Assembly: GCF_964199755.1 (NCBI RefSeq)
Contig: NC_133900.1
Span: forward strand, 23,413,701-23,477,700
Source: Larus michahellis
Taxonomy: Eukaryota > Chordata > Aves > Charadriiformes > Laridae
DNA: 64,000 nt
Direction of reading: 5' to 3'
A program made the position numbers and the translations under genes. The notes beneath the pieces were generated by a model. That model saw nothing but the letters and a program-made list of their open reading frames with translations, was not told the origin of the DNA and ran no database searches. Positions 21,391 through 64,000 of the stretch are shown one piece after another (the stretch's first letter is position 1; every line of letters starts with the position of its first letter).

Positions 21391-22140
21391 TCCCTCCCGC
21401 TCGCCCGCCAGGCCCCGCCCCCTCCCCGCCAGGCCCCGCCCCTTTTGGCCCCTGCCGCCGCCCGTAGGCCGCGTGACGCAACGCGCCCTCCCATTGGCCG
21501 ATTCAATAGTCGCGGGCTGCTTGAACGGCGAGAGCGGCGCGAGACTCGGCGGCGGCCGCCGGCGCGACTCCCGCCCGTCCCCTCGCGTCCCCTCCGCCGC
21601 CACCACCGCCACCATGTTGGCGGAGCAGGAGAACCAGGAGAACGTTCCCCCGGGCGGCAAAGCAGCAGCGCCGCCCGCCGCCGTCACCCGCGTGGCGCTG
21701 GGGCTGCTGCGGGGCGGCCAGCAGCGGGCCGGGCTCCCGCCGCAGGTGAGGTGAGGGGAAAGGGGGGAGGCGCCGCCATCTTGGTTCGGCGGGAGCTGTC
21801 AGCGGCGGCTGTCAGCGGCGGGGCCGGGGCGGGCTGACCGGCCGCTCTTCCCGCTCCCCACAGGCGGCTGCGCGGGGCGGTGGTGAGGGCCATGGCGCGG
21901 CGGCGGCGCGGCGGCCGGTCGGCGGGCAGCAGGCCTTCACCATCCATGTGGACGAGCCGGACGGGGAGCAGCGGCGGCGGCGAGGCGGCCCGGCCACCCA
22001 GAAGGAGGAGGAGGAGGCGGCTGCGCTGGGGCTGCGGACGGCCGTCTGTGCCCTGGGGGAGCGGCGGCCCCTCGCCCCCCTGGGCAACGCCATGGAGCTG
22101 AGCTTCGGTAGGTGAGGCCCCGCCGGGGCTCCGGCGGGGG
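21390..22140 (+). promoter_or_regulatory. CCNA2: CpG-island promoter of CCNA2
   Basis: A very GC-rich block covers the promoter, exon 1 and exon 2 of CCNA2. It contains repeated Sp1-type boxes (GGCCCCGCCCC around 21410-21445) and a CRE-like TGACGCA at 21474-21480. There is an inverted CCAAT box (CCATTGG, 21491-21497) and the CDE/CHR element, listed separately. A perfect YY1-type site (GCCGCCATCTTGG, 21772-21784) lies just inside intron 1. No TATA box is seen, as in other cyclin A2 promoters. Confidence 0.8.
21508..21526 (+). promoter_or_regulatory. CCNA2: CDE/CHR cell-cycle element of CCNA2
   Basis: A CDE-type TCGCGGG (21510-21516) is followed after four bases by the CHR core TTGAA (21521-21525). 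The flank CAATAGTCGCGGG matches the human cyclin A2 promoter as I recall it. In mammals this pair binds the DREAM/MuvB complex, silences the gene in G0/G1 and lets it rise in S/G2. It lies about 90 bp upstream of the ATG, with the NF-Y box 13 bp before the CDE, as in the known arrangement. Confidence 0.88.
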
Positions 22141-30629: not shown

Positions 30630-33600
30630 TTAATGAGCAGCTCTCTTCTTTTTTCTCCTTTTGTTAAATGCTTTTTTACTTGTGTTTTCTTGCTTCGAGT
30701 TGGTCTGTGCTCTGTGAGCAAACAACATTTGTATTAAAGAAACGTACTGAACAGTTTTATTTCAAAAGAGCACAGGCGGATCATCCATAGCAGGGCAACC
30801 ATTGTGCAAAGTTCAAACTTCGTTTCTAGAAAGCATACTCTGCACAATAAGGGTGGCCGTGACTAGTTCAGGGATACAGCAATAAGTCTCACTTCTTGGA
30901 GAGAAAACGTAAGATTAGCTGTAGGGGAGCATGTAGAATCTCTGCAGCATCTCCAAGGAGGAGCTGATTCAAATCCAGTTTTATGCTCTTACTCCCTTTG
31001 GATGTTAGTCAAATATCTATACCCTTTTCAGACAGCTGCAGGTCACCAGGATGACCGGCTTCCTAGGACAGGAGTAAACTGCCCTAGATTTAAAATGCCT
31101 CGCCCTCAGTTACCTATGTATACAGTCCCTTTGATAAACTGAGACCTTTCCTGGCCTTGCCAAAATCCTGTGCTTCCTGAAAATACTCCTCACAAACATC
31201 TTTCCCCTCCTAATTTCACATGATGGTTACCTTGTTTTCTTTGGTAGTTCCTGTGGTTCCAGAATGACAACTTCTTCCTCCTCGCTGTCGGACAGTACAA
31301 TAGGTTCATCTAAAAAAACCCACACAAATCCACAAACCAATGAGCAGTTTTGTACAAACAACTTCTGCAACTAATAACCACCGCATTTTAAAAGAAGCAT
31401 TCAGGGTGTTTAACTTGGAGCCCTCCATATACTACAGAAATAAAATTTTCTTTTGAAGAAAAGAGAAGTGCCCAGGTGAAGTGAAAGTAGTAAACGAGCG
31501 TAACTCTCAAGTGGAAAGTGGCTACAATGGTTCTCTCTTGCTAAGGACCTCTTTCACATTTGAATTCTAAACTGTTGATAAAGTGATATAATAAGCATTT
31601 CTGCTATCAAGATAAATACTTACCCTTCTTAGTTTCCTTCATTGTACTTGTATCCTCAGTTTCCATTTTCTGACATTCTAAAGCAGTTGCTTCACTTTCA
31701 TCTTCCTCTTCCGCCGCTTCTTCCCTGTCAGATTCTTCAAGGTCTCCCCAGGAGTTCTCTATTCCTTCCCCAATTTGGGCTGTCCCAGGAGTGTGCAATA
31801 TCGGTTTGGCAAAACTAAAGTAGTTAAGAAAAATCTTGCTTTGCCAGTAAACTCTTTGTATTCTGAGAGCAAACCAGCTGGGTTTTAAGCTGTATCTTTT
31901 CTCCCCAGCGGAAAACAGCCTTAAAGGGGACCTGAGAGAGACTACTTCTCCAGTTACTATAACAATCTGTTACTTCAGACTGCAGTTTTGCACTTTGTGC
32001 CAGGAATTAAGTTATGTTGATGTTTCCTCTGAAGGCTGTAAGGCTACCTAAGCTGCAAGGAACCTTGGGTGTGCGTTTAGCTTCTAGTAGTGCTAATGCA
32101 GGGGGTGGGAAGCCTGGTTTTCCCCTGAATAATGCAACAGAAAAGATACACTTCCGAAGGAGGGTCGGCTTTCGTGATGATTTCTTCTGCTTGTTCTTCC
32201 ACATTGTTAGTATCAACAGCAGTGCTTTCCATTTTGAAGGCAGTGATCTTTTGATTCGGTATAGATTCCGCAAAGCCGAACTTCCCACCTTCTTTCCTAG
32301 TCATTCAGTGACAGACATTATGTCAGGATGTTTCACACTTAAAAATGCTTTCTCTTTTCCAGTTCAAATATACAAATACTTGTTATTTACTTACTATACA
32401 AACACAAGTGAAAACAATTTGCTGTTCAAACTACAGGTTGACATGACTTTTTAGTATGTTTCTTAAAAACACCCATTTCCCTTCCTTCCCGAAACACTCA
32501 CCTAACTTTCTGGTCGTTCTCCAAGGCTTTTTGAATTAGTTCTGTTATTTCTGCAACCTTAACAGCTGTTATTTTACTGCATCTCAGAACCTGTTTGTTA
32601 TACATACAACAACAGTTTACAATCATGAAAACAAGGTATTTTTAACTGTCAAACATCACAGGAGTCACAAGCACTTAAAATAAAATACGGAACCTTAGTA
32701 TGAGGCACTGGATACACTATGAGTTGATGCAACAGGTTCACACAACAGCCTCTAGCTATTCATGACAGCGCAGCCTGAAATTAATTTACAGACTCCATCA
32801 GCCAAATCACAGGGGAAAAAACCACGCATATCTGACCAAACAGTGTTCCTTTCCTACGTCTCTTCTTCAACATGATGCACAGTACTATGCTCTTCCACTA
32901 GGACTAAAAATACATCATCTTTTCCAATTATATCCAACAGGTAATTGATTTCTTAGCTTCCAAACATCAAGGACATTTCACTACGAAGATTACAGCAAAG
33001 GAACTAGTTTATATACAAGAGGGAGACTGGTCAAGGCAAAGATTTACCTGATCCTTTATTAGCATAATCCCTCCACTGGACTGCATGGTACAAATTTCAC
33101 GATGTTTATTCATGGCAATTACGAGGACACCATCCATTACACGTTCTTCGCGTTCACTTGGATCCACCAATAAATAGGTTCTAGAATCAAGTTTAAAGGC
33201 AACAGTAAAAATCTGAGGTGAGTTACTACCCTTAAAACAATTAAATAAAAGAATCAGTTTACATATTAGTAATTCCGGTTATATTCTCCTCCCAAAAGCT
33301 TTCTATGCTATCTGTGGAAAGCTGCTGGTTAGTTACACCGTGCAGAACACAAAAATATCTCCCCATGGCATCCCACTTCAGATAAAGTATCTTAAGAAAC
33401 TGGCTTGACAATATAAATATTTTTAGGGCTCTTCTATGTTTAAAATCAATTCTGCAGAACTGACAGTAAGCTGCTCCTGTCAGAAGACTTAAAAATCTTA
33501 CCCTTGCTGGAAGAAGGCAAAACTGACACAAATAGGCATGTGGTGGATACTCAAGGGGACGGGATCGCGTTCCTCAGGAGTGTACTGTGAAAAGAATTGG

Positions 33601-35852
33601 CCCAGAAGACAATTATTTACAAAACACATTTAATGTCAAAGTTATGTACTGTACAAAGATATTTAAAGAAATAGAAAACAAAGAAAAAAAAAGGCTAACA
33701 AATGTTTAGTCATCTAAATATTAAAAAATTTCTTTTTTAACTCATGTGCAGTTCTTACTGTTTACTACCTACATAGGCATATACAGCACATTCATCAGCC
33801 TTATGCTTGATTTGGTCAAAATACTGTAAAATACATATCTTCTACAATTCGTATTCCCGTAACTGAGGTTGATAAAATTCAGTATTCAGCAGGCTTCCTT
33901 ACTATCCTTTCACATTTTGAATAGTAACACATCTATCCTAAAATGTAAGTATCTTGGAGTTTATCTGCTTACACACTTAATTCTCCCTTTTAGACAGATA
34001 GAAACAGCTACCTGTGATGATGCCACAACGTTTCTCTGGTAGAACTTACCACAGTTACTTCCTCTCCTTGCACAGACACATCTGGTCTGCGAAAATGACA
34101 CAGAGCTACAATTCCTGCTATGCTGGCAGCATCAATAATGTTCCCATCATGATTTAAGAGGTGCAGGTCCAGACGAATTTGCCAAACCTGAGGAAACGCA
34201 TATGTGACTGCTCGGTAATTTGTGACACGATTCTACAGAAGTTATTGTCTTTCAAGATAACTTCATTGTTTTGAACCATAAAAAGAACCAGCATTCAGGG
34301 CTGTGCTTAGGAAGATGAAAGATCTCAGTACATCCGAGACACCCAGTGTGCTACATTTAATTATGACAAAATACGTAACACTTAAGTAAACTTTAAACTT
34401 TACTCTGCAAAGAAATATTTGAGTGTGCAGGGTCTCAGCTACTTCAGGAAGCCTGTGTAGATATTTAAGTTAAAAACACCTGTAAAATCAGATGTGTGGC
34501 TTATATTATCCTAAAATCAGAATTTCTAGTTCCCAAAACAAGACAGAGACCACCTTAAAAACAGACTATATGTATCTTTTAGTTTAAAACCACTTGAAAT
34601 TAGGTTTTCATACCTTTTCACCAGCAACAACGCAGAGAGATTCAGTATCTATACATTTGGAATTTCTCAGGCATCGTTCTATTAGTCTGTTCAGTTTCAC
34701 CAATAAATCTGTTTGCCTGTTAAAATAAAGTTAACCCCAACTGAATACGATTAACGCAATATACTTACATGTATCAAAACAGCGGCTCTTATGTCATCCT
34801 TACTTAGTCTTTTTAAGAAAGCTACATACCTGCCAGGCTCAAAACCAGGTGCAGCCATCGGTGAGAGCTCAAGATTAAAGAAAAGTATACCTTCGGTGGG
34901 ACGATTTGGCTTGGGGGGTACAAGTTCACATGAGACTTGTGCAAGAACCCTGCAAAGATATATAAACCACTTTTAGTCACGGAATTTAGCAGGAAAAAAC
35001 CTCCTACCACTAGAAACAAAATACATACTTTGAGAAAGCACAAGGTTAGGCTTTTAGTTTGTACTTGTCGCTCCTGACAGTTTCTCATTCAGTGCCTGTC
35101 ATACATACGTAAAGCCTTGTCAACAATTGAGTGTACCAAATGTAGACATTAGAACATGTCTAAAAATAGACTCAGGCACATGAGAATCTATAACTAAATG
35201 CTTATGTAAGTGCGTATACTCCACGTTTCCGCACACAAAAAAGGGCTGTTTGATTTGTGGAAGAGTACGAAATGTAATGCGAGATCAGTGAATAAAGCGA
35301 TTAAAAATTATAATAATTTTGTATTTTAGAAATTTGTTGTAATCGATAACCAACACAGAAACCCCATCCCTTCCCGTCCCACTTCTCCTCTATGGTCCCA
35401 TCCTTGAATTGCTACCACTTTTAGGCTTCGGTCCTTAAAATCTGTTTAACGTGACGGCAGCGGGCTTCCAGCCTGACAGCCTTTCCTGGGGCCGCGGAGC
35501 CGGCCCAGCCCCCCCGCACCCACCTGGTCTTCCCCAGCTCCACGATGCAGCAGCCGTAGTCGGCTCCGAAGGAGATCCGCACGTTCCGGTAGTCATAGCA
35601 CTGCCGCCCGTCCAGCCGCTACGGGCCCAGAGACAGACACACCGGATTAATGCGCCATAACCGGGGGGAGGGTCCGGCCTACCCCCGGGCGGCGGCAGGG
35701 GGCGACCCGCGCTAGCCGCCCCACCCTCCTCGGGGACGGGGAAGGGAATGGAAAAGGGGATGGAAAAGGGGAAGCCGGCGACGCACCTTCCTCTCCTCGA
35801 CGGCGCGCAGGATGAAGCGCCGCTCGCAGTTGGAGAGCGGCGTCGCCTTCAT
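30630..35852 (-). CDS. EXOSC9: EXOSC9 (Rrp45, PM/Scl-75), RNA exosome core subunit, 12 coding exons
   Basis: EXOSC9 is one of the six RNase PH-like subunits forming the barrel of the RNA exosome, which feeds RNA to DIS3 and EXOSC10 in nucleus and cytoplasm. Coding exons from 5' to 3': 35787-35852, 35524-35618, 34830-34949, 34614-34716, 34050-34187, 33502-33584, 33048-33180, 32502-32590, 32150-32296, 31624-31814, 31231-31309, 30630-30711. All are GT/AG and in phase, giving 441 aa (human 439). The start MKATPLSNCERRF matches the family. The RNase PH fold fills residues 1 to about 275 (RLDGRQCYDYRNVRISFG, ISFAD-type core LLNHDGNIIDAASIAGIVAL). An acidic tail follows, with IVLSDSEEEEVVILEP near residues 392-407, a SUMO-interacting-like motif, and then a basic end (KRRKKKRAAH) that looks like a nuclear signal. 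The donor of the 147-bp exon is an unusual GT|GTATCT, chosen because it alone keeps the frame. It looks intact. Confidence 0.96.
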
Positions 35853-36060: not shown

Positions 36061-39000
36061 CGTCATCGTCCCTTACAGGCCGCTAAAAGACGGGCACAGG
36101 GGCCTACTTCACCTGGGACGGGGCTGGTGGAGTAACCGGCCCCATCGCGGCTCTCCCCGCCCGTCTTCAGCGGCCCTCTGGGCTTGTGCCAAAGCGCCGG
36201 TCGTCGGGGGAGCCATCTGGAGTTTAAAAAAGCGCGTCTCGGGCATTTCGAGTGGATAACGGTGTTGAAGTGCAGTCTTCAAGGGGCGCGTGCTCCCGCA
36301 GCCCCTGGAAAACAGCTGAGTTGGTAGCGTGAGCGAGGCAGGCAGTGCTCTAGGCCAAAATGCAGCAAAAGCTTCAAATATTTCAGAGGAACGTCCTTCC
36401 CTGTTGTTCTGAAGTGTTGCCCGTAAGTAAAAACTCAAGGTTTCAAGTAAAAACAAGTGTCTGTTACGCTTAGTTTGAGTTGAACTGAGAAAATGGGTTA
36501 CTGTGTCTTCCCACCAATGTTAAATCCCAGACTCTCTGACTTTTCTCACACAAAATTGTTTAAATATCTCAGCTATATTGTCTTTTTAAATCTTGTTAAC
36601 ACACTTAAGTTCTAGTGCAAACTAAAATTGAGTCACATTTCACTACTTCAAGTTTGTGCAAGTGAGGACAAGTGCTGTCTTGATTTTTCCGTGCTGGTTT
36701 TATGTTTTAAGATTAGGTTAAATGAATATAATCACAAATATTCAGTGTAAAAGAATATTGATGTGATCACAAAAAGGCCCCCTTGGTGTAAGGACAAAAA
36801 TAAGCAAATAGTTTTCCCAAAAGGCGCTATGTGTGAAGCAGCAATAACGAGCAAAATGACGTAACGCTTCCGACTTTAGCCACAAAAATGCTAACATTTA
36901 GTGTAAAGTTCTCTCTCATCACAGATACATGGTTGATGGGGTATTTTCCTTGGAGTTTAACTGTCAGTCTTTAGGTAGAAATTCTGTCTTGGATTTGCTT
37001 TTTCTATTGTTTTTTTGAGCTGAGTGCTCACAGTATTAGCCCAAAGTTTAGTGTGGCAATGAAAGTGGTTCCCGGCGTTACTATGAAGAAGCACCGCTTT
37101 TCCCTCCTGTCACTCTCCGTGTGGGAGCAATCTCCAGATGTTTGATGGTTTTGAGCCTGGCACTGGGCAGGGTGTTAGCACCAACATTAGAGGGGCAATA
37201 AAAGAGGTGCCCAGAGACAGTGAGAACAAGCACCACTTTTCCCTCCTGGCACTTCCCATGTAGGATCAATCTCCAGACGTTTCATATCTATTGAGCCCAG
37301 TTATGGGGAGAGTGTGAGCCCTACAGTTAGAGGGGCAATAACAACAGTTCCAAGACAGTGAGAACAAGCAACAGTTTTCCCTCCATGTAGGTCTTCATAA
37401 CTGTAATCAGGCAGAACCCATGTGGCACTGAGAGCCACCTTTGCGTCAGAGAAAGGTACTCAGGGACTGCGGGGGGCCTCTGCAGGAGACATATTGGAGG
37501 GTTTGGCTCTGTACTGTTAGACAAAGACGACCTTTTGTGGTTTCCCCCTGCTCTCCTGCTCCGTGGAAAAGGCAGATTGAGACCATGGCCAGCTTCAACT
37601 GTGTACAGTAAAAGTATTTCAATTTTAATTTTGTCTGTCTCCTTTCCACCTCCTTTTTGGGGTGCCTGCATGATTTCCAAAGAGGGGGATAACAATTTGG
37701 GACAAAATCTTTCCCTTCCAGCCTTTTGAGGACCTTGGTAATGCATTGAAATTGCAAGCAGTAGTTACTACCTGCAGTTAAGAGGACTACATTATGCTTT
37801 TGGAAATATTTGAAGGCAGTCTGCTCTCTACTCTAGCAATAGTAAAAAAGAGTTTGTGCCTCCCCACTTGTAAACTGCTTTGAGTGTCTGAAATGCTTGA
37901 TGTTATGGGTACTGCTGAGATGTGCAGGAGCACAAAGTTCATGGTGCAGAGAAGTAGAAGATAGGCTTGATCTTGGCATTTACTTACGTACATGTGATAA
38001 GAAACTTCATCAGCAAAAAGAGAAACCCTATGACAGAAGAAGTATTCACAGTCCCTGAGAATAGCGTGAACATGCACAGCTTGTGGTGCAAAGACAATGC
38101 TTTCTCCCCCTTGGGGAGCCAGTGCAGGCTAATAGTGTACTAGTTTCTTGCTGTACAAGAATCAGAATTCTTCCACCCACCCTGTTGCGTTAGTGTCCTA
38201 AGTAATCTTTTTGGCCGTGTCAGTGTGCTAGGTAACCACTGTTGAGGAGCATTCCCCTCACAGAACTTAGTTTCTGTTGTCTGTAGACAGCAGCCAGTGA
38301 CACTGACCTCCACTGCAAAGTGCCCTGAGATCAGTCAGAAAGCAGGGTAAAATGCTTAGGTAGTATGTTATCATTTTATCATCCATTCAGGTAATGATAG
38401 GGTTTAGCAGACTGAGCATGCGGGATGTTCAAATAGGATGTGGGAGGTTGGTTTGGTTTGGCAAGTGCAAACCAACCGTGTCTTTTTCAGTGTCTGCTGC
38501 TTGAACATGTGTCTGCCTTGGCTGATCTATTTCTTTTGTTTGCCTTTCCTAATGCTCATAGGACACTGAAGGACAATACTGAAGCTGTTCTGGACAGCAC
38601 AAGAGCCATGAAACAGAACTTGCCTGAGGGAGGAAGATGCCAGGATACCATAGTGATAGTTAACTTAGCGTAAGTCATTAAAGAGGTTTGAAGTAAAAGG
38701 CTCCTCTGACAGCTGCCCCAGCAAGGGGAATGCATCACTGAAGTCTTAGTTGAGGATTTTTTTCCTATGCAAGTATTCATCAATGCTGTATTTTGAAAAC
38801 ACTGCGAGAGTGTGTTTTGCTTAAGCCAAAGATCAGGATCATCCTTTTAACTGGTCTTAGTTTTGTTCTATTCCAAATCAGGAGGTGTTTGATTATAACT
38901 ATGTGTAAGATGAATTCAAGGAGAAAAATAACAGAAATACCTCCTCTCTTCACAATTTGAGTACAAGAAAACTTTCACTCTTGGTGATGTTTGTATGGTG

Positions 39001-39150
39001 ACAGGAGGAAATGCTGTTAGATCAATTTTTAGGAGCTTGTAAAATTCATGTAAAGAAACAGAGCTGGACGCTAACCCACCGAATGCCGAGAACAGCCTGA
39101 TAATTCAAGTCCTAGAAAGTGGCTAAAACCTGGTAATATGACAATTCTTT
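36060..39150. other. Spacer between EXOSC9 promoter and KLHL8 remnant; likely synteny junction
   Basis: About 3 kb without a recognisable exon. In an intact KLHL8 locus the BTB, BACK and first kelch exons would lie here on the + strand. I looked for kelch words (double glycine, ERYDP-like) in this interval and found none. The only structured part is the decayed tandem repeat near 37.0-37.4 kb. Confidence 0.55.
37017..37395. repeat. Decayed tandem repeat, period about 139 bp, about 2.5 copies
   Basis: Two full units (about 37091-37229 and 37230-37367) share blocks such as CTTTTCCCTCCTG, CAATCTCCAGA, TTAGAGGGGCAATAA and GACAGTGAGAACAAGCA. The same blocks recur in a partial copy to the left (from about 37017) and a partial one to the right (CAACAGTTTTCCCTCC, 37369 on). 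The spacing of the CTTTTCCCTCC block is 139 then 138 bp. The units are about three-quarters identical by eye, so the array is old. I do not recognise the family. Confidence 0.8.
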
Positions 39151-39154
39151 GCAG

Positions 39155-39811
39155 GTGGTTTTGATGACAACTCTCCACTGAACTCGGTGGAGCAGTTTGA
39201 CCCATGCAGTAAGAAAGGGAAATACGTAGCAGAGCTTACAACTCTGAAGCATTTGATCCCATAGTGAAGAGGTAATTTAAAACTTTTTATTTGGCTTTAT
39301 AAGACAATGAAATCTGCCTATATGAAAACACAACATAATAGAGTGTGCAGCAGGAGGTTTATCTGTTGTTTCCTGGTAATAATTGAATAACGTCCATGAC
39401 TAGTGATGCAAGAGTGCTGCTTATGCCACTAGATTCTTGTAAATATTAAAGCACTGTCTCCTCACTCTTTCCATCCTTTGTCCTGTTCCCTGCATTCAGT
39501 AAGAATTGACATTCTTCTGGTTGTTTCAGTCTGATTTACCAGACAAATAATGAGAATAAACTCAAGGGGTGTATTTTTGTGCAGAGTATACAACTAGGCT
39601 GTATAACAGAATTTCAGACACAGAAAATAAATACTTCCAAGTTGCTTGGAAAGGACAGGAACTTCCCCTCCCTGCCATCTTCTTTAAGTGGGAACGGGTG
39701 GGCTCTGTGTCACACTGCAGGGCAGAGACAGACATGGCTGTGTGCTCTTGTCTCAGCAGCCAGATCCGGGACGTGGGACAAGGATCCAGCAACGTTGTTA
39801 ACTGCATGTGA
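39155..39811 (+). pseudogene. KLHL8: KLHL8 remnant: last two coding exons only
   Basis: KLHL8 is a BTB-kelch adaptor for CUL3 ubiquitin ligase. The first piece (39155-39271) starts at a good acceptor (TTTGCAG) and reads GGFDDNSPLNSVEQFDP, then KYVAELTT. It then jumps to EAFDPIVKR before a GT donor. Compared with human KLHL8, recalled from memory, about 85 bp coding the part between LTT and EAFDP is deleted, which shifts the frame. The second piece (39689-39811) reads WERVGSVSHCR, then MAVCSC and SSQIRDVGQGSSNVVNCM, then TGA. About three-quarters of its residues match the human C-terminus. Its acceptor appears damaged: AA stands where AG is expected before the phase-keeping G. No BTB, BACK or earlier kelch exon is found between it and the EXOSC9 promoter. 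An AATAAA lies at 39903-39908. KLHL8 lies tail-to-tail with AFF1 in human, as here, so this is a remnant at its original place, not a processed copy (the intron is kept). Confidence 0.85.
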
Positions 39812-42800
39812 GCTCTGCTGCCTCCTCCAAATGCCCGAGGAATGAGAATACGGGAGGCACTGCACAGCTTTTAAACATCGTGTTTTGTACAGCAGGTTAA
39901 GAAATAAAAACAATACATTTTCTTTGTGAAAGTGTTACCTTCTGCCACCTGTAAAGGTTTTGGTGGCTGTCTATCAATAATGATATAGAAAAGCTTGTGA
40001 AAACACCAAGTAAGAAACTGTGAAACCAAGTAGCCTGGCAGTGCTGCTGCCAGCTGATACATTTCTCCTCTTGATGGGAGAGTGCCAGCACCCGTGGGTG
40101 CTGCCTGTGAGTAACTCACATGCATTGGTCCATCCTGACAGCATCCAGGCACCAAAGGGAGACGTGTGTGTTCGCAGGGAAATAAGGTTACAACAAACAC
40201 AGTGGTATTCCCCTTGGTGTGGGAACAGCTCTGCTGTCGACCCTGTAGCTGGAAGTCAAATGGTGCTAGGTTTGAGCACCATCGTTAAGATAGATGCTTC
40301 TGTTGTATTTCAGTTTGCACACCACCACCCGCAACGACATTTGTGCTCAGGCTTCTGGAGGCATATTGTTAAGGGCTGGCAGGAAAACTGCAAAAGTTTA
40401 CAAGGAACAAGTCTGTTGCCAGTATAGTGGTGTCCACATTCTTAATCTTAGACGGCACCAGAACTACAAAGATTTTGTGCAGAACTGTTTCTAGAAACAC
40501 TATTGCTGGAAATGTGATAATGATGTTGAAGTATATTAAAAAAAAAAAAAAGTATAGGACTACTGTGGCAACACGCAAATGACTTACCTGCATATAAAGC
40601 TATTGTGATTTAACACCAGCAAACTCGTTTTTCTTCTTCCAGTACTGGCAACAGGATAAGGGTGACAAAGATGGAGCCCCCCCAGGTTGAGAGAAAAGAG
40701 CAGCCTACCCTCATTCCCCATGGTGAGGCAGCCCTCCAGCAGCAGCAGCAGGCATTAACTCCCACTGCATCTTTTAATTTAAAACTAAACTCGGGATTTG
40801 CGATAGCAAAATCATTCAGGATCATGAATTCATTGCATCTAAACATGATGCACATCTGACCCCAAATGTGGAATTGTTACTGCTTCTATTAATGATGTTT
40901 TTCCTGCATCTAAAAGCCTTGAACTCACCCATAAAAATCAGGAACCCAAAGAGGTCTGTTAGTACATCCTTTAAACACAAAGAAAAAATAATTTTGTAAG
41001 AATCCAGTGCAGTCACTCACATCAGAGTTTCCAGCCTGCTGATTTGAACAGCCTGCTGATATGAACAGGCTTCCAGGAAGAGCAAGACCAGACTCTGGAC
41101 CACTCCTGACCAGCCCCCTTGGCTGTGTATCTCCAGTCACGACTATGCAGCCAGCGCTTATAAGTCACCCTGCTGCCACCCCAGCTTCTGGGAAATGCCA
41201 CCTCCCCGTCTCAGCTCTCTTGCTGCCCCCAAGTTAGATTTCTACCCGTTTAAGTGAGATTTCTGACCACTACATTAAAATAGGAATTTCTGTTTGGGTT
41301 TTTTACAGGACATGCCATAACACCATGATGATGCATGATTATTGTTTATTTCAATTTTGTAAAATACATCCTTTCAAAATAATCTTAAATTCACACCTTA
41401 TTGTTTACATTCAAAGAGGATTGTGAGAATTCAGTTGTATTTTCACAGCTTTAATTACTTTTAAATATTGCTCTTCCTCAAGGGCATCTCATTCCTAATA
41501 GAGCCATGCTTGCAGCAAAACTGTTTGGATTAAACATACTGCTAAAATATTCAGATGTGGACAGAAGACTTTAGAATGCGATGCAAGTGCTACTTGCATG
41601 TTTTAAAATGTAAACAAAATATATGCATGCATTCTTAGTCCCATCAGAAAGACTATTTCCTCCTGGCTTGATCACTGGCTGAGGGAAAATGATTTCACTG
41701 AAATGTCCTCCTGTAGAGGGGGACGCAGTCTGGCAAATAACCAAGCCTTCGCAGAGGGCTCTGCTGCATGGAAGCAAGAGGTAACACTGATCCCAGCCAG
41801 GTGCTGGAGGGATCCCGTATGTGTCTCCAGGATCTCTTTTCAGATGCAGTGGGATCTGGGGGCAGTTATTCCAGCGTCAGTGTTGTTAACCCTTGTAGCA
41901 TGCATGGATGTAGGGCAGACTGAACACGTCAGAAGCAATTTATTCATCAAAACCAAGGAACATCTCTTGCTCACGATCCGGTAAGACTCAGGGGAGCAGT
42001 GGAAGGTTAGTTAAATAAAAGGACAATTGCCACCAGCATGATTGATGGCAGACTCTGAAACCAACACTCCGGCTGAATAGCCTCTTTCTCTGTGCTCCAT
42101 CGGACTGCAGTCAAGTGCTAGCAATATAGATGCAGACAGACCAGCAGCAAGAAGACTGTCAAAGCCCCGTAAAATTATATGAGATTGCTTTGCTGCTCTG
42201 AACTTTTGTGCACACTTACTTAAAATCAGGCTGCCTTCCTGCGTCCCGACTGCACGGCCTCAGTTCTGTGTTTTACCTCCACTTGCAACAACATTTTGAC
42301 TCTGAAGTGATTCCATCTCATCTAGGAGTTGGAAAAGAGCTGCATGAGAAAATCCATGTCAACAGGCAAAAACATCTACAAACGGCAGACACTGAGGAAT
42401 GGGGGGCAGGCCTGGTCGACTCAGGGAAACTCCTGAGTAAATAAAGGTTTGTTAAAGTTAAAATTGAGTGCTCAGAATGCAACACTGATTGCGCAGCTTC
42501 CCAACAACTCCAGCCCAATGTAACTGCCCTGAACCACAATGAGAAACAGAAGCAGTTGCGTTTACCTCATTTGCTGCATGTCCTCCGCTCTGTCTGCGGA
42601 GACAGCTGCAGGATGCTCAGCCTGATCTTGTGTGATGGGAGCACGGCTCTGACACCAAATGACACTGAGATTGATTTTACAAAAAAGTTGTCATCGAGCA
42701 ATAAGAATTCAGCCAATTAACTTGTTCAAGCTTAATTAGAACAAATGCCTGGGAAGTCTGTAACTCCAGATTACTCCCACAGTTAAATGGGGCTTTCTAT

Positions 42801-45260
42801 CTTCATTTAGGCTGAAACTGCTTTTAAAACTATTTTCAACATAGCTGCAGTGCGCATTTTTGCAAACCCAGTACTTTATTCCAGATGCTCCACTTAAATT
42901 TTTTGCTGACTGCTTTTACCACATCTGTATTGGTTTTCTAAACCTTTTAATGTTCTCTCGACTGGAACTGGCAGCAAATAAAGTACTCCGAGCCAGGAGA
43001 TGAAACTTATATTTGTAATTCTTTCCTGGCTCTGTCAACAAGGCTGGTGTTGCTGCCACTTCACAGCATTTTAACGCAATTCCTTGGATTCCACACAGTT
43101 TCATTTTAAAACTGTTCCAGCACAAGGGAAAAAAAAAAGCCAACAGGCAGCTATGTAATTTCTGCCGCCTGACTTGTCTGCAGGGGTTATCGCGTTCCAC
43201 CACTGCACGCAAAAAGCCCGCGCAAATACACAGCTGCCATCAGTGTTCCACTGAAATGGTGACTCCATCTTTCAATGGGTGCACACCCATATGTTAGGTG
43301 ACACAGCAACCAGCGTCCTGACAGAGATAAGACGACACGTGCACTGGGCTGTGATGACGAGAACACAGGTGTGGTACGGCTGCCTGCCCGGCTTCTAGGG
43401 CACCCCTGCTACCTGGCAGCATCCCACAGGAAAATTTCTCTGAAGCTTATTAAATTAATGGTCCTGAAAATTAATACTCTAAGCAGGCAACTATGCAGCT
43501 AGAGCTGTTCCTGGGAGCAGCAGCAAGGCCTAGCTCTGGTTCAATTGCCAACGAGAAGCATTTTTGTGTCTTCATTTGCTTGATGGGTAAGACTTAACTC
43601 AGGCCAAGAATCATAAGCAAATTATCTTCCCCTACACACATTTTCTAAGAAGGTAAAGTAAAGAAAAAAGGACAGTGCAAGTCAGCACACCTAACTCAGC
43701 ACAGGCTGCTGGAAGAAAGTAATTGCAAATCCATGCACTGTTCTGACACAGTCTGAGTCAGATCTCCAACTGAACGGCCGCCAGATGAAACAAACAGCAC
43801 ATTACGCCACATGGCGATTTTCTCCTGCTTCTCACTTTTCTGTTGTACAAGCAGATGCCAGCTCCCCCGCCAAAATCTTGCTCAGTGCAGGATAGAAAGG
43901 ACAGGAATGGAAGAGCAGAGCCAAAGAGCCCTTCTTTCTTTCCCTCCTCAGTGGGCATCCTAGCCGCTCTTGCTGCTGCCATTTGGTTCCCAAGGTCTTC
44001 CTTTTACCTCCAAGAGACTGCCATGCCTTTCTTTCTCTTACCTCTTCTTTCCCAGCCCCTCGCACCTGGCCCTGCTTTGCCCCAGCTGGTTTTCGTGCTT
44101 TTTAATCACTCCCCACCCGACATGGGTTGCTGGAGCACCCTTAGCCAGCTAACCATACTCTGTCTTATCTAATTACCACCAAAGATCTACAACTTCATGC
44201 TCCCCCAAGGACCATCCCCTCTGCTCCACACACTCCCTTTTCCTACTTGCAATGTCTGCACACACACACTTCAGCTTTCAGACGAAGCCCCTGTCACTGT
44301 GGCACCAACACTGCTCCAAGGCATGCCAACACTTCCTCCACTGCAGCCTGTCAGAGGGGAAAAAAGGAAAGCTGAGGTGGGCATACACTCATCCTGCTCT
44401 ATAAAGCCCATGGCCACAGAAACACACAGCACAGCCCTGCTGGAGTCGTTAGCCAGGGCACTGCTGTCTCCAGCCCCTTAAGATTCATCCCTCTGCATGT
44501 GTCTGGTGCTGATTCACATTCACCAATGACTGGTTTTTAGCAGAAGGTTAGTTACTGCCCTTAATTAAAGTTATCCTCACTGAAGGAAGGGCAAAGCTGT
44601 CAGACAAAAGGGACCGGTAAAACAAAAGACTAATTCTGTCTTCTTTTTCATGTTAGAAACCAAAAGACAGAGGGCAGCATCAGACTAGTATGCATGCAGT
44701 CAGAGAGAGGAAAAAAGGAAAATACATACTTACCAGGCATCCAGAGCTTCCAAGGGCACCTGGCCCAGTAAAACATACCCCAGCCTCAGTCAAAATAAAT
44801 AGGATTTGGAAACATGCTGAATATTTTGCCAAAGTAGTACTTACAAATGAATCCCAGCATCACAGTCTTGTCAGGAGGGACACCTGAATGTCAAACTTCA
44901 AGGTTAAAAAACCTGAAACACAACATTTTGATATGTTCCCTCAAAAGGTGGGAATGAGGTGAAGACAGTGACAAGTTTGTGCTGTTGAGTATTTCAAGAA
45001 ATGCAGCTGCATTCCAAGGGAGATGCGCGGCACAATCACAAATTGCACAGCCACATCAACCCTCACCTCCAAGCAAAGCTGCACCCAGGGGCTGTGCTTG
45101 TGCGACTGTGTGCGAGCAGAGCACAGAGGAGGGTGAGACATCTCAGCAAAACAAGAAATTCCACCTGCCCAGGCAGCTTGGTTTTAATTTCATCTTTACA
45201 ATTTGACCAACATCTCTTTCATCTGAAGAACTTGAAGACAAGCAAGTTAAAACTCATGTT

Positions 45261-45307
<47 letters not shown>

Positions 45308-48300
45308 TATGCGCGCGCAGCAATTCACCCTCAATACAGAAGACAAACAAACAAAAGATCTTTGGAGAGATTATTTTTTTTAAATGTTGTATCACAGATG
45401 TGATTTTTGTCTTTTTCGAGGACTATAAAAGGCAGATACTTCTAATTCACAGAAGCCTCAGAGTGTGGATTCAGTGCTGAAGTCAAACACATCAGTCTTC
45501 TCCCCTCGCTTATTAGTGCATCTTTTCCCACTGGAGACTCCATTCTGCCAGAGGTTTGGCATCCTCATTCCTCCCTGGGGCTCTAAGACATTGTGCCTCT
45601 CCCACACCCAGGCCACTGCTGTGTGCCAGCACGTGAAGAGCTGCTGTGAGAGGGAGGACTGGCTCGTAACTCCTCACGGGACAAGGACCATTTAACAGAT
45701 TTAAGACCAACGTTCCATGTTCAGGAAACCTAACAGTTATTTTTTAAGGATGTTCTCACTGAGAATTGCAGTTTATTTACACTCTATGATGATGAGTAAA
45801 GCGGGGTGAAAAAAAGAAAAAACCCAACCCTGTATAATAACAGCTGAAATAGAAATCCCACAGAAATGACCCAGAGCTGCCAGCACAGGGTAGCTGGCAG
45901 CTGAACAGATGGGCAGCAGTTTGACCAGCACGCAACAATTTATGTGCTGCCCGGAGACCTGATGACAGGAGCCCTGCTGGCACCCATGGCACTACCGTAC
46001 GCATTCACGTCCCGAAGAAGACACCACGACATCTTCAGCTCCTGCCCTGCTTCGCAGATTGCATCTTGCTCAACCCTTTTCCCAGGGCCCTCCAGAAAAA
46101 TGAGATAAAGCAAAAGCCTGACCCCGAATCCTAACCAGCTCTTCTCTGAACAGTGAGGAGAGCTCATGAGCAAGTTCAGAGCCTGCTGCACCTCATGTGT
46201 AACAAGCAAGAAGTTGCACAGGTTGGAGCAACTTTCAGAAATACCTTTCGGCTGCCACAGACCGCACACGGGCTGATACATGGCTTCAAATATTGAAAGG
46301 GAACACAAAAAAACCCTCTCAGTTGGGATGCAGTTTTCCTGGCTCAACAAAAGTGGACAACATCGCCGTATTGCTATGATAGGAAATATTGGACCCAAAG
46401 AAAACCTGAACCTCGGCAACACTGAGCAGGAGAGGAGAAAAACCTAGCAGGAATTCCAGGAACCCCGTACCTTGACAAAACATCGCAAAACAGCAGTGAT
46501 CACACAAGTCCTCGTTTTAGGAACACAAAGTTTATGGAAACACATTCAGAAATGCTGATGATGGCCCAGGAACACTGTTGGTTTCAGGTAGTGACAGGGG
46601 TTACTAAAAGTGCAATTAATATATGGAAAGCACAGGCTGCCAATGGGCTATCTTAGTGTTTGGAGAGTAGCATAGGGCTGAGAAAATGCAATCAACTTTA
46701 ATGCAGCTGTTTTGCCAAAAATAATATCTGTTTTTGAAAAGCCAAGCCAAAGCAAGAAGGCAAGTTAATCTATAATCTATAAAAATCTCAAAATAAATTA
46801 AACACAGTTGCAAAATTAGGTTTGGCCAATAAAGGCTCAATAAATAAACAAACAAAACCAAGAAAATATTATTGGAAAACCCAAAAACATTTTTGGCCCT
46901 TTTAGCCAAGGCAGGCTGCTGCCCTAGGGCAGAAAGCTGAGTGGGGCCATCAAAGCCTGCTGCAGCCCCATGGCCTCCTGGCTCCCCCTTCCCCCTCCTT
47001 GCTTTTGCCTCAAGTGAGAAACATACCTTTTGGGGTGTGAGAGGGAAGGAAATGGTGGGACAGAGGACACGAGTGACCCAGGAAAACCATCACCCCCCAG
47101 GCCAGCAGACAGGCCAGCTCGTGTCCAACTACACCTTGCATCCCACCGAAACCAGAACAAGATTCACAGTTGCTTAATCCACATATGTATGGCCACAACC
47201 ACAAGCTACCTTCCCATGCTCTTACCCTCCACGCATCTTTCAACCAGCCTGGGGCTGACCTGGTTTCATGCCACTTGAAACACTCATAGCAGTGAACCGA
47301 GTCCCAGCCCCACCTTGCCTGAGCAAACGCACCACCAAGTTCCTTCTGTCTAGTCTGTAGCTAAAAATCCCACCAGATGCTCATCTGGGGACATTTCACA
47401 TTCGATTTTTTTTTGCCTAACTAGATATTTTTTCTTTTTATTCTTACTTCAATACTGATTTTGCCGTTGGGATTTTAAGCATGCAGTGAAAAAGTGCGCT
47501 GATCCCCTAAAAAGTGTACTTTTCTATACACAACATCTGTAACAGCAACAGAGCTAGTGGGTATTAAAACAGGTTTCAGCATCCTCTACAATTTACATAC
47601 TACATTAGAAAACCACAGCCATTATTAGCAAATATCTTAGGCACAGTGCCTGTTGCAGAAAGGACCTGAATGATACACATGAATTTCATCACAATAGTGC
47701 AGAGAGAGGTGCAAAAATCATTCTTCCAAGGAACAGTTACATTGCCTGACATAAAACAAAAAGCGGGAAAAGGCCCAAACAAGAAGAATAAAGCCATTGC
47801 AAAGAGATCACCTTGCAGGACCAACAAGAAGCAGAACTACCACGGGGCATGAAATCCTGAGGGATTCTCTGAGGGGAATCCTCCTTGCAGCACTTCAGAA
47901 ACGTATCCATGAACTAGACCTGAACAGACCCTCCTCCCAGCTCCCAGTCCTGCAACACCGTTGTGGCAAACGCAGAGCAGTACGCTTTAGCCACCCTTTC
48001 TGTGCCTTGTTTCCTTATTTAACTTGTTTGAGTGCATGAAACCAAACCCGGGATATTCCTGTCAGCGAGCGCTCAGAGCCAGGCTCTGGTGGCCATCAGC
48101 AGCTGACTCCAGCAGAGTCTTCCCTGAATCCATATCAGGTGGACAGAAGGCAGATGTCTTGAGTGGTGACCCTTCTGCCACTCTGAGCATCGAGATTTGC
48201 ACCCGTTCCTGCTCCTAAATGAAAGGGCAAGGGGTGATAAACAGGGGAGCAATTGAAACACAGACTTATTGTACAGAAATTCATACTTAAACCTTATTCA

Positions 48301-51786: not shown

Positions 51787-54700
51787 TTAAGGCGTATTTG
51801 TTTCCAGTCTCAGCCACTGTAAACCCTGTCTAGTGTAGTGTACCAGTTCGGTCATGCTACTGTTCAGTGCCAGAGCACACGTCGCTGTGCCGAGTTCAGC
51901 AAAAAACTCTGGAAAAAGGGCAGGGAGAGAAAAAACATTTGGTTGGTTTCACACAACAGGCACGTCTGACAGGTGAGGGGGCAGCAAGGAGCGACAACAG
52001 CAGCACACTGTCAGTCAACAAGTCCCATTAAACACATTGTTAATGCAGAGAGCTCAGCAACATGAGAAGGCTGGGAAGCATAACAAGCACATGAGGCAGG
52101 GCATGGGAGAGTAAAATGCACTCACACACGCATACACACACTTGAACTGCCGCCCCAACTGATGCCTTTAAAAGGACATCAAGACTCCATGATAGATAGG
52201 CAAAAGTTTGGGTGTTCACACACGTGCCACATGCTTCCCTCACATTTTAAACACACCAAATTGGAGCGCCTTTCAGAGCAATGCCTGGAATACACACAGC
52301 TGTTACTGGACTGCTCCTCTTCCTTCATCCACCTTCAAACTTTGGAGACATAATGATTTCTCAACTGAACAGGTTAGAAAATTTGTAGAGCTTGCCAGGC
52401 TATACAGCTCTGAATCAGATTGCTTATAGCTGGGCATATCAGGCAGATTTAACAGAGTCCTCCTATCCTGCCACCAACTTCAGGCACCACGCTCCTCTTC
52501 CCGCACAGGCAGGAGATGGCTTTTGCAGCACATCTGAATCTGCCAGAAGGTGCCAGCAGGCTACACACCCTGCTCTGTGCTGGCAGTCACCTGTGCAGGT
52601 GACAGTGAGTTATGGGAAATCATCACACCTTTCTTACCAGTCACCTTTCCAAGACAGCCCCCCATGACCTGCCTTCCCGTGACATGGGCTCATCCCAGTC
52701 CCTCCAGCCTCGATCGTGTTGCCAGGTACCTTTTCAGAAACTGGCCACTCTCAGCTCTCCTTTTTCACACACAAAGATTGAACCTGGAGGCTGAAAGTTT
52801 CTGTTTGGCTGTGCAAGGAACTCTTCAGAAGCACAGAGCACGACGCTTTCATTCTAATACTTCCCAATTCAGAAGCAGAGAACACATTTCCCCTGATTTT
52901 CCTGCTTTTGTTTACAAAAATCGGTGTTCAGTACAATGATGGGTATCCAGATACAACTGGGTACCCATGGTGAACAGAAGAGCTGTAAGCAGAGACCAGG
53001 AGTCCAAAACCCCTGCCTAAGCAAACAGAAGATAATCTGATCTGTGACTACAGCACCGTGTGAAAGAAGAGTGACTTTACATGCACACATCCAACCTCTG
53101 CTTGTCCTCGCTGTGGGAGATCACAGGCCAGAAGGAAGACAACGTGTTATAGCCTCATGATCCATGGTGCTGCTCTGTATTACAGCGAGAAGCTGGGTCC
53201 TGCACTGAAGGCACCTAGTTTTCGACTCGCCAGAAAGCATTTCAGCTCTGCACAAGTGACTTGGACATCAGTTACAACTAACTGCTTTCCAATAACTTAT
53301 GACTTCCCTGTTTAAGGGAACTTGATAGCTGGAGGCCACTGCTCGCTCTTCTTCTTCTTCTCCAACCCTATGAATTGCATAAAAGAATCAAGGATGTGGT
53401 CTTTTTATTAGTTTTATGTACTCACTCTCTGTACCTCTTAGCATCTGTACATTACACCAAATATCAACAAGTGTCAGAGCTGGAACTCCTCCACCTTCCT
53501 GAACAGTGACAACTGCCAAGCCTACGTGAGTATTTACTGTTCTCCTGCACAGATCCACTCTCTTGAGAGCATTTACTACCCCAGTCGTCATTCCCCTACA
53601 TTAAAACAGGAACACAGAGCAGGTTTTGAATTTACTCTTGACTGATGCAAGATTGTGCTCAGGCTGTCTCCCCACAGGTTTTCCTCCACGACTCATTCCT
53701 CTGGCTTACCAGCAGCATCCACCACTCCTTCTATGTGACAGTCTTTTATCAGCCTTTTGAGGATATAATCCAAAATACTACACACGAATTGCTGCTGTGA
53801 GCACAGATTTGCTCAGAGGACAGCCAACAACTGGGGTTCCTTCATTCAAAGGTGACTTGCAAAGCCTTTCTGAATTTCAGCAACTGCCTCATTAGCATGA
53901 GTCTTTTTACAGCCTTCCAACAATTCAGCCAGGCACATTGTGCTTATTTTCTTGTGCAAGTTTGCCAATAGATTGTGGCAATACATCCCTTCACCCACAG
54001 CAGCTCACAAAAAAAATTGTGTTTTATGAAAAATGACACTGCAAATGCCACATGGGATAGCACATTACAGACTGAACTGCACCCACTCTAGGGCTTTTGC
54101 TTACTCACCACTGCTTGTACCACGGGACAATACAACATTTTTAACAACAAAACTGTAAAATAAAGAGAGTAGCAGCAATTTTGGGAAATGCTACGGGCAA
54201 ATATACTGGTCATGTGCACAGCAAAGACTTCAAGTGCTGCTCGGATTCAGTTATGGAGAGAAGCCAGTTTCACTGGTTTCAAGACAAAAATACCTGGAAG
54301 TTTGACGAACTGAAACACAACGCTACAGGCCAAAAAGCTGTTTTTAAAGAAAGTGAACCAACACAGAATAGCTAAGCACCTCAAAGGAAAATTCAAACAG
54401 CTAAAACCCCCTTACGCTCCTTGTTGTTACCACGAAGAGAGCTGGCTGGTTTCCTGCACTTGATACCCTCAGCCCTTACCTCTTAGACATTTGAGGATGC
54501 CAAGATAATCTTTTAATTGGAACACTCATCAATGTATCACCATCAAGTATCTCTGCCAATAATCTGCCAATATGCCATAGCTGTCTATTTCAACATATTT
54601 AATGCTTTGATCTTTAGGTATGGTGTTTGCTACGCTGAGTGTCAGGATTTAAGCAAGTACACACACATAACCACAACACATAAGACAGAAAAGCCAGAGG

Positions 54701-57700
54701 ACCAAAACTTACCCTTATTCTTCCCAGCCAGTGCATCAGCCTGTTCCCAAATATCACACGCATAGAGGATATAGGAAGTGATATTGACGTAGGAAGAGGT
54801 GATGCTTGGGATATTATAGGGAACAGTGACTGAAGAGCCAACGTTGTTGCCGCTGCAGTTGCTAGCATTCGATCCCAGCTGAGAACTCACAGAACCAGCA
54901 GGAGAGGGCATTGGAGAAAGAGGAGAAGGCATGCCTGTGCTTCTGCAGGAGAAAGAAACACCATCATAACAAGACTTTTAACTTCAGAGTTAAAAGTCTT
55001 GCCGCAAGACCATCTTATGACAGTATCATCCTGTATTGTCCAGGCCTGCAGTACAGGGTGGAGCATTGAAAACTGAGATGTGTTCAGATTGGTTTTGTGC
55101 AAGGCCAAGGTTTTTGAAGTGATTTGACAAAATAAAATGTAGGACCAGACATCAGAAAGGGCCACCCATTCAGCTTCCAAAATCTACACCTACTTGTGGA
55201 AGCCTTCACCAGATTATTTAAGTGTTTTTTGCTAATGGAGGCTTGGAGCTTTCTGACAGCTAGTCAAAGCAGCCAGGTCAGCCTACACACACTTATTTAT
55301 AGACCTAGGGAAGCTAAACAGAGTCAGCTGCCCGCCTTCCAGACACAGGCTGGCTTCATCGCACCGCTTCAGCCAACCTGATTTTAGTCACTGGTGTAAG
55401 AGGGCTTCCACCACTGCTCTTGGGAGACCATTTACTTCCCAAAAAACTATACTGTGCAAGGCAGCAGAAAAATAACTGGAATTTCAGCATCACTGTTAAA
55501 GACCAAACAACCCTCTCTCAACTGCACAGTTTAAAAGGGACAGACGTGGAGCCAGGTAGCTATCTGCCAAATGCAATTACCACAGCACGCAGAAAAACTC
55601 TTACTCAGTGTCATAAAAACACAGGCCCAGTCTGCTGGGTACCGGGCCAAACGCTGTTATGCAACAGCTTGCCCTTTGCTTTTGCTGCCACACATGCAGC
55701 AACACTACTGCAGATAACTAGAAAGGACAAAATGCTCAATAACTCACAAATTAGAAAATGAGTTTCTTTTTCTGAATTGGTGACTGAGCTAAAGAGAAGA
55801 AGACTGAAGTATCACCTCAAAGTTATGCTACCCCAGGGTGAAGGCGTAAGCCTACTGGACAGGAGCCGAGGAGATGGGGCTGGTATCCCATTAAGTCTGA
55901 AGGGTTCTCTAACAGAACAAAGATGACAACAGGGACTCTGAAAACAGCATAGTGACGATATCTTCCTTGCTCCTCTGACCCGCTTCTCAGGTGGAGTACT
56001 ACTTTGCTTGATACATGATAACTCTGGACCTCGTAACAAACAAAAAAAAGCCCTTTCCAATGAGAAAAGACAGGAAAGAGAGCGCAGAAACATACTCATG
56101 CCCCCTAACAGTATGATTTCAGGTGGCAAGGAATAGTGAGTGGTGAGGCACTCTCAAATGCAGTTTGCAACTCAAAGACTCCGGCTTCTGTTTTCACTCA
56201 CACCCTTAGAGACACATTACAACGTATGTATTTCTAAATCTTACCTTGCAACACACGGAGAAGGTGCTTGTGTTACTCTGGAAGAACTCTGCAGCGAGGA
56301 ACAGAACTCTTGTTAGGTTTGGGGTATGCAGCCAACATCAGTAACTACCACAGCCATCCAGCTGGCAACTTAGTATTATCCGTGCCCTACCTTAAAGTGG
56401 TCATTCAGAATCCTGGAATACTTGACTGCAGTATCTTTTTTGTAACGAAACATTGCCATGTGCAGAATGCACTGGCAGCGCATGCTGTGAACAGAAACAC
56501 ACCCAAGCGTCAGCGTTCACACTCGCTGCTGCCTGCTCAGCAGTCGCCAGCCTTGGGGGACAGAGGCAGGCACACATCAGCTGTACTGCAAAGTCAAGAG
56601 AGCTCAGAACTTCTCCTCCTTCTGCTCATCTTAAAAAAGAACTCAGTGAAAAAGTCACAAGGTGAAAAGAACAACCAAGGAAGGGCCACGTCTGGTGTTT
56701 TATACAAACAGGCGCCCAGCCTGTCATAGGTGCCAAAGGCTGAGTAAGCCCCTGTCCAGAAGTGCCTCAGCTATGTTCAACCACAGCTTCAGTTACACGG
56801 CTCAAACACAGGCAGCCAAATTGCACCCTTTCACCTTAGGTGAAAACCCTTATGTGCTCTCAAGTTACCAGCAGATCAAATTTTAAAGCCTGTGCCTTCC
56901 ACGGGTAGTCCCTTGTGATAATCCAGCTCACTTTAGAGATGTTCCAGTTCATTCTGAGTTTTATATTGTGGGGTTTTTTATGTTGTAGAACTCTGATTCC
57001 CAGTTAACTCTTTCCTTCGCCCCTGAAAGTAATGGGTCTTCCACTCTATCAAGTCTAAAAACAGAATAGGAAGTCACAGAAAAACAGCTACACACCATAA
57101 CACGGCAAAGATTTTTTCACGTGAAGATGCTGATGAGTCCGTAAAGGATTTCAATGTCATGATGAATCTAAGGAAACAAAATAACCAGAGTCTTGTCAGC
57201 CATCAGTGCTCTCAAGTCCCACTGTTTATGAAAAAACAGTGCATGCTGTTATCTCAAACATCGGTCCAAAAGTCAGGAAACCTGCCCTGACTTTTTAGTC
57301 CTGGCACTGAGTGCTTTGCATGATCTTGAGCAGAGGACTGTCTCTCAAAATGCCTTGTTTTCCACGCAGCAGCAACAGATGTGGCCCCTTATGTGACTCA
57401 CTCTCCTCTTACACTGATTACACTCTAACCTACAGGCCTGGGGCCCAGAACAGGTGCCCTGGCTACTAAAGGTGAAATATTCATTCGAGTCTTTCCAGAC
57501 AAGACAGACATCTTAGTGGAAATGTTTCTTTTGGCTAAAAACAAACAAGCAAATCTTTTTGAAAACTAAGCGACAACAGCATCTTGGAAATACAGTCCAT
57601 CAAGACCACAAAGCAAACAATGTAATTTATAAAGTCTGCAGTCTACCACAAAAAATCCTGACAGCTGTTTCAGCTCTAAGGCAAGAAGTCAAATCAGCTC

Positions 57701-63700: not shown

Positions 63701-64000
63701 AGCAAGTGCTATTCAGAGCCTGTAAGCAGTGACAGCAAAAGCAGCTGAGGGAGCAGACAGTATCAGCATTAACACCTGACTTTTTTCTTTCATCAGGACC
63801 TGTCCAATTAAGAAAACAGCCATGATCGCCAAGTCAAAATTTAGGGACATTCAGTTACACTTAGTACAATACCCTTTCCCAAGAGGCTGCCGGAACTCTC
63901 TCTGCTGTGGACATGATTGCTCAGTCATGGGAACGAGAGTCACAACTTCCAGGCCTCGCTTTCAGTTATTTTACCTATTTGCAGTGGGAGTCTGAGCAGC
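51787..64000 (-). CDS. AFF1: AFF1 (AF4), 3' ten coding exons; 5' part outside the window
   Basis: AFF1 is a scaffold of the super elongation complex that brings P-TEFb and ELL to paused RNA polymerase II. Coding exons from 5' to 3': 63975-64000 (partial), 61476-61722, 60349-60440, 59310-59373, 58324-58460, 57096-57167, 56391-56484, 56245-56288, 54713-54942, 51787-51908; all GT/AG and in phase, 375 aa to the stop. The first part is Ser/Pro/Lys-rich and disordered. The C-terminal homology domain (dimerisation) starts at HHPMEYYIEEAKRLKHKADAM and includes FIMTLKSFTDSSASSREK and KIFAVLCMRCQ. A Ser/Pro linker (SPLSPMPSPAGS) follows, then SSYVNITSYILYACDIWEQA and the end ELVHYTRQGLQWLRLETNTP. FIM.LKSF.D, SSS.V.QAPSPC and the final TP fit AFF1 rather than AFF2, AFF3 or AFF4 as I recall them. 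The first, 26-base exon fits by phase and donor but is short. The rest is secure. Confidence 0.93.
54970..55001 (-). repeat. Perfect 14-bp stem, 4-base loop hairpin in an AFF1 intron
   Basis: CAAGACTTTTAACT, loop TCAG, then its exact reverse complement. In the AFF1 transcript it lies 27 bases upstream of the 3' splice site of the exon at 54713-54942. The arm contains TTTTAAC, a good branch-point match, about 47 bases before the AG. A third block, GCAAGAC (55004-55010), can pair with the same arm instead. Confidence 0.85.

What the first reader, a model, noticed from the sequence alone, without database searches (positions are those of the whole stretch)
39155..39811. KLHL8 survives only as its last two exons, with a deletion and a damaged splice site
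The two pieces match the last kelch blades and C-terminus of KLHL8 in order and on the strand expected from its tail-to-tail position with AFF1. The intron is kept, so it is not a processed copy. About 85 bp of the penultimate exon are missing, the last acceptor reads AA in place of AG, and no upstream exons fit in the 3 kb before EXOSC9. Either KLHL8 is lost in this lineage (a unitary pseudogene) or an intact copy sits elsewhere and this is a stump left by a rearrangement. The last exon's reading frame is still open, which suggests a fairly recent event or some retained use.
Basis: partly seen in the sequence, partly recalled or inferred. Interest (0 to 1): 0.78.

Follow-up and report, generated by a model that had tools for sequence, protein, structure and literature searches.

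The report
Leftover KLHL8 tail at rearrangement scar
The broken KLHL8 piece is an old, decaying duplicate left at a chromosome rearrangement point, while a complete KLHL8 gene survives 12 million bases away on the same chromosome, so the gene is not lost.

Summary
In detail: window 39155-39811 carries the last two KLHL8 coding exons with their intron, an 85-bp frameshifting deletion, and AA where the last acceptor should read AG. But the gene is not lost. A complete KLHL8 (9 coding exons, 8 of 8 introns GT-AG, 619 codons open) lies at C9:11225049-11238512, 12.2 Mb away on the same chromosome beside HSD17B11-like genes. Window 38557-45974 is, in blocks, an inverted copy of that locus (KLHL8 intron-1 fragment, intron 7, exons 8-9, 3'UTR, spacer towards AFF1; K2P 0.122). 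AFF1 stays beside the stump (C9:23465490-23526204). KLHL8 and AFF1, tail-to-tail neighbours in human (recalled), are thus separated here, and the shared spacer is at both sites. The junction is a mosaic: EXOSC9, a 139-bp tandem repeat, inverted AFF1-intron pieces, 72 bp of KLHL8 intron 1, a 7-bp microhomology, then the KLHL8 tail. A textbook two-break inversion from the human order is not enough: no annexin was found at the other junction, which instead carries a second, shorter ADAMTS3 copy. Verdict: an ancient duplicated pseudogene at a complex rearrangement junction. The kind is known; the anatomy is worth recording.

The parts
31230..35852 (-). EXOSC9, the gene on the left side of the junction (its 5' end faces the stump)
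37012..37384 (.). 139-bp tandem repeat; related copies at many places in the genome
37384..38557 (+). inverted copy, in two blocks (37384-37578, 37895-38557), of an AFF1 intron and the first few bases of the next exon (source 73865-74730 in window coordinates, just right of the window); 38368-38526 is 100% identical to the source
38557..38628 (+). 72-bp fragment of KLHL8 intron 1 (copy of C9:11237592-11237521)
38622..38628 (+). 7-bp microhomology GCCTGAG where the intron-1 fragment meets intron 7; 11.1 kb of KLHL8 (with exons 2-7) missing between
38622..39154 (+). KLHL8 intron 7 (3' part)
   Evidence: this block, with the start of exon 8, is 82% identical to C9:11226388-11225720
39155..39271 (+). 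KLHL8 exon 8 remnant, 117 of 202 bp; 85-bp frameshifting deletion at 39245-39247; splice sites kept
39272..39687 (+). KLHL8 intron 8, kept; acceptor AA at 39686-39687 instead of AG
39688..39811 (+). KLHL8 exon 9 (124 bp, as in the intact gene), frame open to the stop, 6 private amino-acid changes
39812..45974 (+). copied KLHL8 3'UTR (poly(A)-signal-like AATAAA at 39903-39908) and the spacer towards AFF1; matches C9:11225048-11218177 in blocks
42764..44361 (.). 1.6 kb present here but absent from the other copy (insertion here or deletion there)
51790..64000 (-). AFF1, last coding exon 51790-51909; exons continue to C9:23526204 beyond the window

Best explanation
This is a duplicated (unprocessed) pseudogene fragment at an old rearrangement junction. 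KLHL8 and AFF1 were tail-to-tail neighbours. A rearrangement on this chromosome separated them by 12.2 Mb, and the DNA between and around their 3' ends ended up, in opposite orientations, at both new sites. One copy stayed with intact KLHL8, the other with AFF1. The KLHL8 part of the AFF1-side copy has no first exon, lost exons 2-7 in a microhomology-flanked deletion or template switch, and has decayed neutrally. The inverted AFF1-intron pieces and the ADAMTS3 copy at the other junction point to more than two breaks, probably including copying repair (template switching). Shown: the copies, their orientation, the whole KLHL8 parent, the decay. Inferred: the ancestral order, the direction and the mechanism of the rearrangement.
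For: Complete KLHL8, 619 codons and 8 of 8 introns GT-AG, beside HSD17B11-like genes. The KLHL8-tail DNA 38550-40010 matches only the window and the intact locus on C9, inverted to each other. Colinear spacer copies up to 45974 / 11218177. AFF1 exons in order from C9:23526204 to 23465490 on the window side, and no convincing AFF1 exon at the other locus. Mosaic junction with AFF1-intron pieces, a KLHL8 intron-1 fragment and microhomology. Neutral-looking changes in the stump's exons.
Against: A single clean inversion from the human order would put EXOSC9's former neighbour at the other junction. ANXA5, a human neighbour (recalled), is not there: the annexin matches on C9 lie at 6.35 and 44.67-44.68 Mb, no ANXA5 match lies in the 100 kb searched, and the flank is a second ADAMTS3 copy. 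No related vertebrate genome could be searched, so the ancestral order rests on recall of the human map.
Confidence: 0.78

Rival explanations
1. KLHL8 is lost in this lineage; the piece is a unitary pseudogene.
For: The window copy is clearly broken.
Against: A complete, open KLHL8 reading frame lies on the same chromosome.
Confidence: 0.01
2. An inverted duplication of the KLHL8 tail and spacer near EXOSC9 existed first, and recombination between the inverted copies later flipped the segment between them.
For: Same end state; the authors of the herring study favour this route for inverted duplications at inversion breakpoints (PMC11499932, passages read). Two inverted arms here share a 159-bp identical tract, so such arms can interact.
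Against: Needs a prior duplication event; the other flank does not restore an EXOSC9 neighbourhood by the human order.
Confidence: 0.15
3. KLHL8, its spacer and neighbours were copied to the 11.2 Mb site and the original here then decayed by deletion.
For: The stump lies at what looks like the original AFF1-adjacent position.
Against: HSD17B11-like genes are beside intact KLHL8, and no HSD17B11 match was found in the 114 kb around and including the window; EXOSC9 follows within 3 kb.
Confidence: 0.08
4. Assembly error or duplicated haplotype.
For: None found.
Against: No N in the stretches used, about 12% divergence, several indels.
Confidence: 0.02

Closest known systems
Inverted duplications at inversion breakpoints (Drosophila subobscura O7, PMC7584159, and Atlantic herring, PMC11499932; passages read in both)
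   Same: duplicated DNA, in opposite orientation, at two sites on one chromosome; in the herring study 8-60 kb long and 85-99% identical
   Different: here the reciprocal flank does not match a two-break inversion from the human order, extra AFF1-intron and ADAMTS3 copies are involved, and a coding gene has a stump at the junction
Duplicated (unprocessed) pseudogenes (recalled)
   Same: partial copy with intron, intact parent elsewhere, disabling changes
   Different: lies at a junction that also separates two neighbouring genes
Template-switch rearrangements (FoSTeS/MMBIR; recalled)
   Same: short pieces from nearby loci in mixed orientation, microhomology
   Different: so old that later deletions cannot be told from original switches

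Membership tests
Unitary pseudogene of KLHL8 | no intact copy in the genome | tested here: not met
   complete KLHL8 at C9:11225049-11238512
Processed pseudogene | introns absent | tested here: not met
   intron 8 and part of intron 7 kept
Duplicated (unprocessed) pseudogene | intact parent elsewhere | tested here: met
Duplicated (unprocessed) pseudogene | introns kept | tested here: met
Duplicated (unprocessed) pseudogene | disabling changes and neutral evolution | tested here: met
Duplicated (unprocessed) pseudogene | no functional transcript | not testable with these tools
   no RNA data held
Two-break inversion with duplicated breakpoint | copies inverted on one chromosome, each joined to a different intact gene | tested here: met
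   AFF1 judged by its exons in order, not by a spliced frame
Two-break inversion with duplicated breakpoint | the other flanks of the two junctions were once neighbours | tested here: not met
   against the recalled human order only: no annexin at the second junction; an ADAMTS3 copy is there. The order in nearer outgroups could not be tested.
Two-break inversion with duplicated breakpoint | uninverted order in an outgroup | not testable with these tools
   no vertebrate relatives held

The most novel reading that the evidence does not exclude
One copying-type catastrophe joined EXOSC9, an AFF1 intron, two KLHL8 fragments and the AFF1 spacer. The sites stayed fragile: ADAMTS3 was later copied to the other junction, where a CR1-like element lies in the gap between the two imported blocks, and inverted arms 35 kb apart still exchange sequence by gene conversion.
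Probability: 0.25. Interest if true: 0.5.

Novelty: new member of a known kind. Interest (0 to 1): 0.3.

Why it matters
It corrects a likely false call of gene loss and gives base-level anatomy of an old rearrangement junction. The stump and its partner are markers that let one date and map the rearrangement on a species tree, and they show how a tail-to-tail pair can be pulled apart while both genes keep their exons. In automated annotation such stumps can be mistaken for lost or duplicated genes.

Tried and rejected
Predicted ANXA5 beside the second junction: not found there. Looked for SLC10A6 near AFF1 with the SBF family: no match near the window (on C9 only at 74.3 Mb). Considered an assembly error and a recent duplicate: rejected. 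Took the 37.4-38.6 kb spacer at first for EXOSC9's own upstream DNA: most of it is an AFF1 intron copy. A Pfam scan and a PDB scan of the ADAMTS-like frame gave nothing; its identity came from tblastn with an ADAMTS3 fragment. I had taken the deletion as 83 bp from the blast blocks; the exon lengths give 85 bp. Papers: KLHL8 with AFF1 and EXOSC9 gave one paper, on tumours by its title; KLHL8 with chicken and synteny gave two fish papers by their titles; inversion-breakpoint searches gave 1, 5 and 15 papers, of which I read passages of two and saw only listings of the rest. I therefore do not claim that this junction is unreported. Whole-length AFF1 searches failed; the AF-4 family search answered the question.

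Full report
What was checked. The window is C9:23413701-23477700 of a 1.4-Gb genome in 616 contigs; size and gene content look bird-like, but I did not identify the species.

The gene is not lost. The same query against the whole genome finds KLHL8 exon by exon on C9:11225052-11238512, minus strand, 65-94% identical to human in the nine main stretches. Joined at the splice sites these give 9 coding exons, 8 of 8 introns GT-AG, and 619 codons with a single terminal stop. HSD17B11-like exons follow, in two tandem sets, at 11253707-11269962. In human, HSD17B13 and HSD17B11 flank KLHL8 on the side away from AFF1 (recalled).

The stump is part of a larger inverted duplication. blastn aligns window 38622-45974 with C9:11226388-11218177 on the opposite strand in blocks of 74-88% identity (blocks redrawn). 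They cover KLHL8 intron 7, exon 8, intron 8, exon 9, the 3'UTR and about 6 kb of the spacer towards AFF1. A further 72 bp (38557-38628) is a copy of KLHL8 intron 1 (C9:11237592-11237521). The two pieces share the 7 bases GCCTGAG where they meet, so 11.1 kb with exons 2-7 was either deleted through microhomology or skipped by a template switch. A genome-wide DNA search with 38550-40010 finds only the window itself and the intact KLHL8 locus. Over 4975 aligned bases in six blocks K2P is 0.122, or 0.093 leaving out CpG sites; the poorly aligned blocks 41588-41987 and 42003-42076 were left out. With a recalled bird neutral rate of 1-2 per 10^9 sites per year this is some 30-60 million years; the rate is not measured here, and gene conversion would make it look younger.

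AFF1 stays at the window. Its last coding exon is 51790-51909 on minus, and exons continue in order to C9:23526204. I did not splice it to a full frame. AF-4 family matches fall at four places in the genome (C9, C13, C15, C1). The AFF1 matches listed at the 11.2 Mb locus are low-identity, low-complexity stretches, not convincing exons. So the two neighbours are now 12.2 Mb apart, each with a copy of the spacer.

The junction is a mosaic. Left of the stump lies EXOSC9 (31230-35852, minus) and beyond it CCNA2 (21927-27023, plus). Between EXOSC9 and the KLHL8 pieces there is a 139-bp tandem repeat with relatives in many places, and then 37384-38557. Two blocks of the latter (37384-37578 and 37895-38557) are an inverted copy of AFF1 DNA at 73865-74730, an intron and the first few bases of the next exon. 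In the longer block, 159 bases (38368-38526) are identical to the source although the rest is 85% identical; the chance of such a run is about 4e-9. The longest identical runs in the five KLHL8/spacer blocks are 39-74 bases. I read this as gene conversion between inverted arms 35 kb apart.

The other junction is also built from copies. On the low side of the copied spacer, below 11218177, lies a CR1-like element interrupted by an endogenous retrovirus (names recalled, the endonuclease domain by Pfam). Its upper end was not determined; the last CR1-like frame seen ends at 11217569. At its lower end, 11208573-11208575, a 93%-identical direct copy of C9:935001-940380 begins (K2P 0.061 over 5324 bp). 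This belongs to an ADAMTS3 copy: the genome has a longer ADAMTS3 at C9:912172-936763, and in 12 of 12 stretches listed for both, the 11.2 Mb copy is less like the human query (by 1 to 30 points; one pair differs in length). Residues 608-651 were listed only for the former, and a short exon could not be found at 11.2 Mb (not tested in the longer copy). The 11.2 Mb copy is therefore probably a second, decaying duplicate, and younger than the KLHL8 one if rates are equal.

What this says about mechanism. Two inverted copies, each joined to a different gene, is the mark left by inversions with duplicated breakpoints, explained by staggered breaks or by repair (PMC7584159, passages read) or by recombination between earlier inverted repeats (PMC11499932, passages read). 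A single two-break inversion starting from the human order predicts ANXA5 or another EXOSC9 neighbour at the other junction; annexin matches on C9 are at 6.35 and 44.67-44.68 Mb only. That membership test is not met, and I file this as a duplicated pseudogene at a complex junction, not as a proven simple inversion.

No sign of retained use. Exon 9 differs from the intact copy at 7 nonsynonymous and 3 synonymous positions over 40 codons (dN about 0.076, dS about 0.109). Six of the seven amino-acid differences are private to the stump when human is the outgroup. The exon 8 remnant has 5 private changes against 0, with 2 unresolved. The numbers are small. The open frame of exon 9 is short enough that its survival needs no selection.

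Noticed in passing
C9:11187205-11208575 (L030-L032) against C9:912172-940380 (L046 in part): A second, shorter and less conserved ADAMTS3 copy lies beside intact KLHL8, in direct orientation to the longer ADAMTS3 10 Mb away (K2P 0.061 over 5.3 kb compared).
   Followed up: partly
window 38368-38526 and its source just right of the window: A 159-bp fully identical tract inside inverted copies that otherwise differ by 15%: probable gene conversion.
   Followed up: partly
C9:11208573 to about 11217.6 kb (L032-L033): A CR1-like element interrupted by an endogenous retrovirus with long open frames lies in the gap between the ADAMTS3 copy and the KLHL8 spacer. Observed only.
   Followed up: no
C9:11253707-11269962 (L037-L038): Two tandem sets of HSD17B11-like exons, about 13 kb apart.
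   Followed up: no
window 42764-44361: 1.6 kb present only in the window copy of the spacer, with clean edges.
   Followed up: no
window 37012-37384: 139-bp tandem repeat with related matches on many contigs, many of them clustered on C41 and C38.
   Followed up: no
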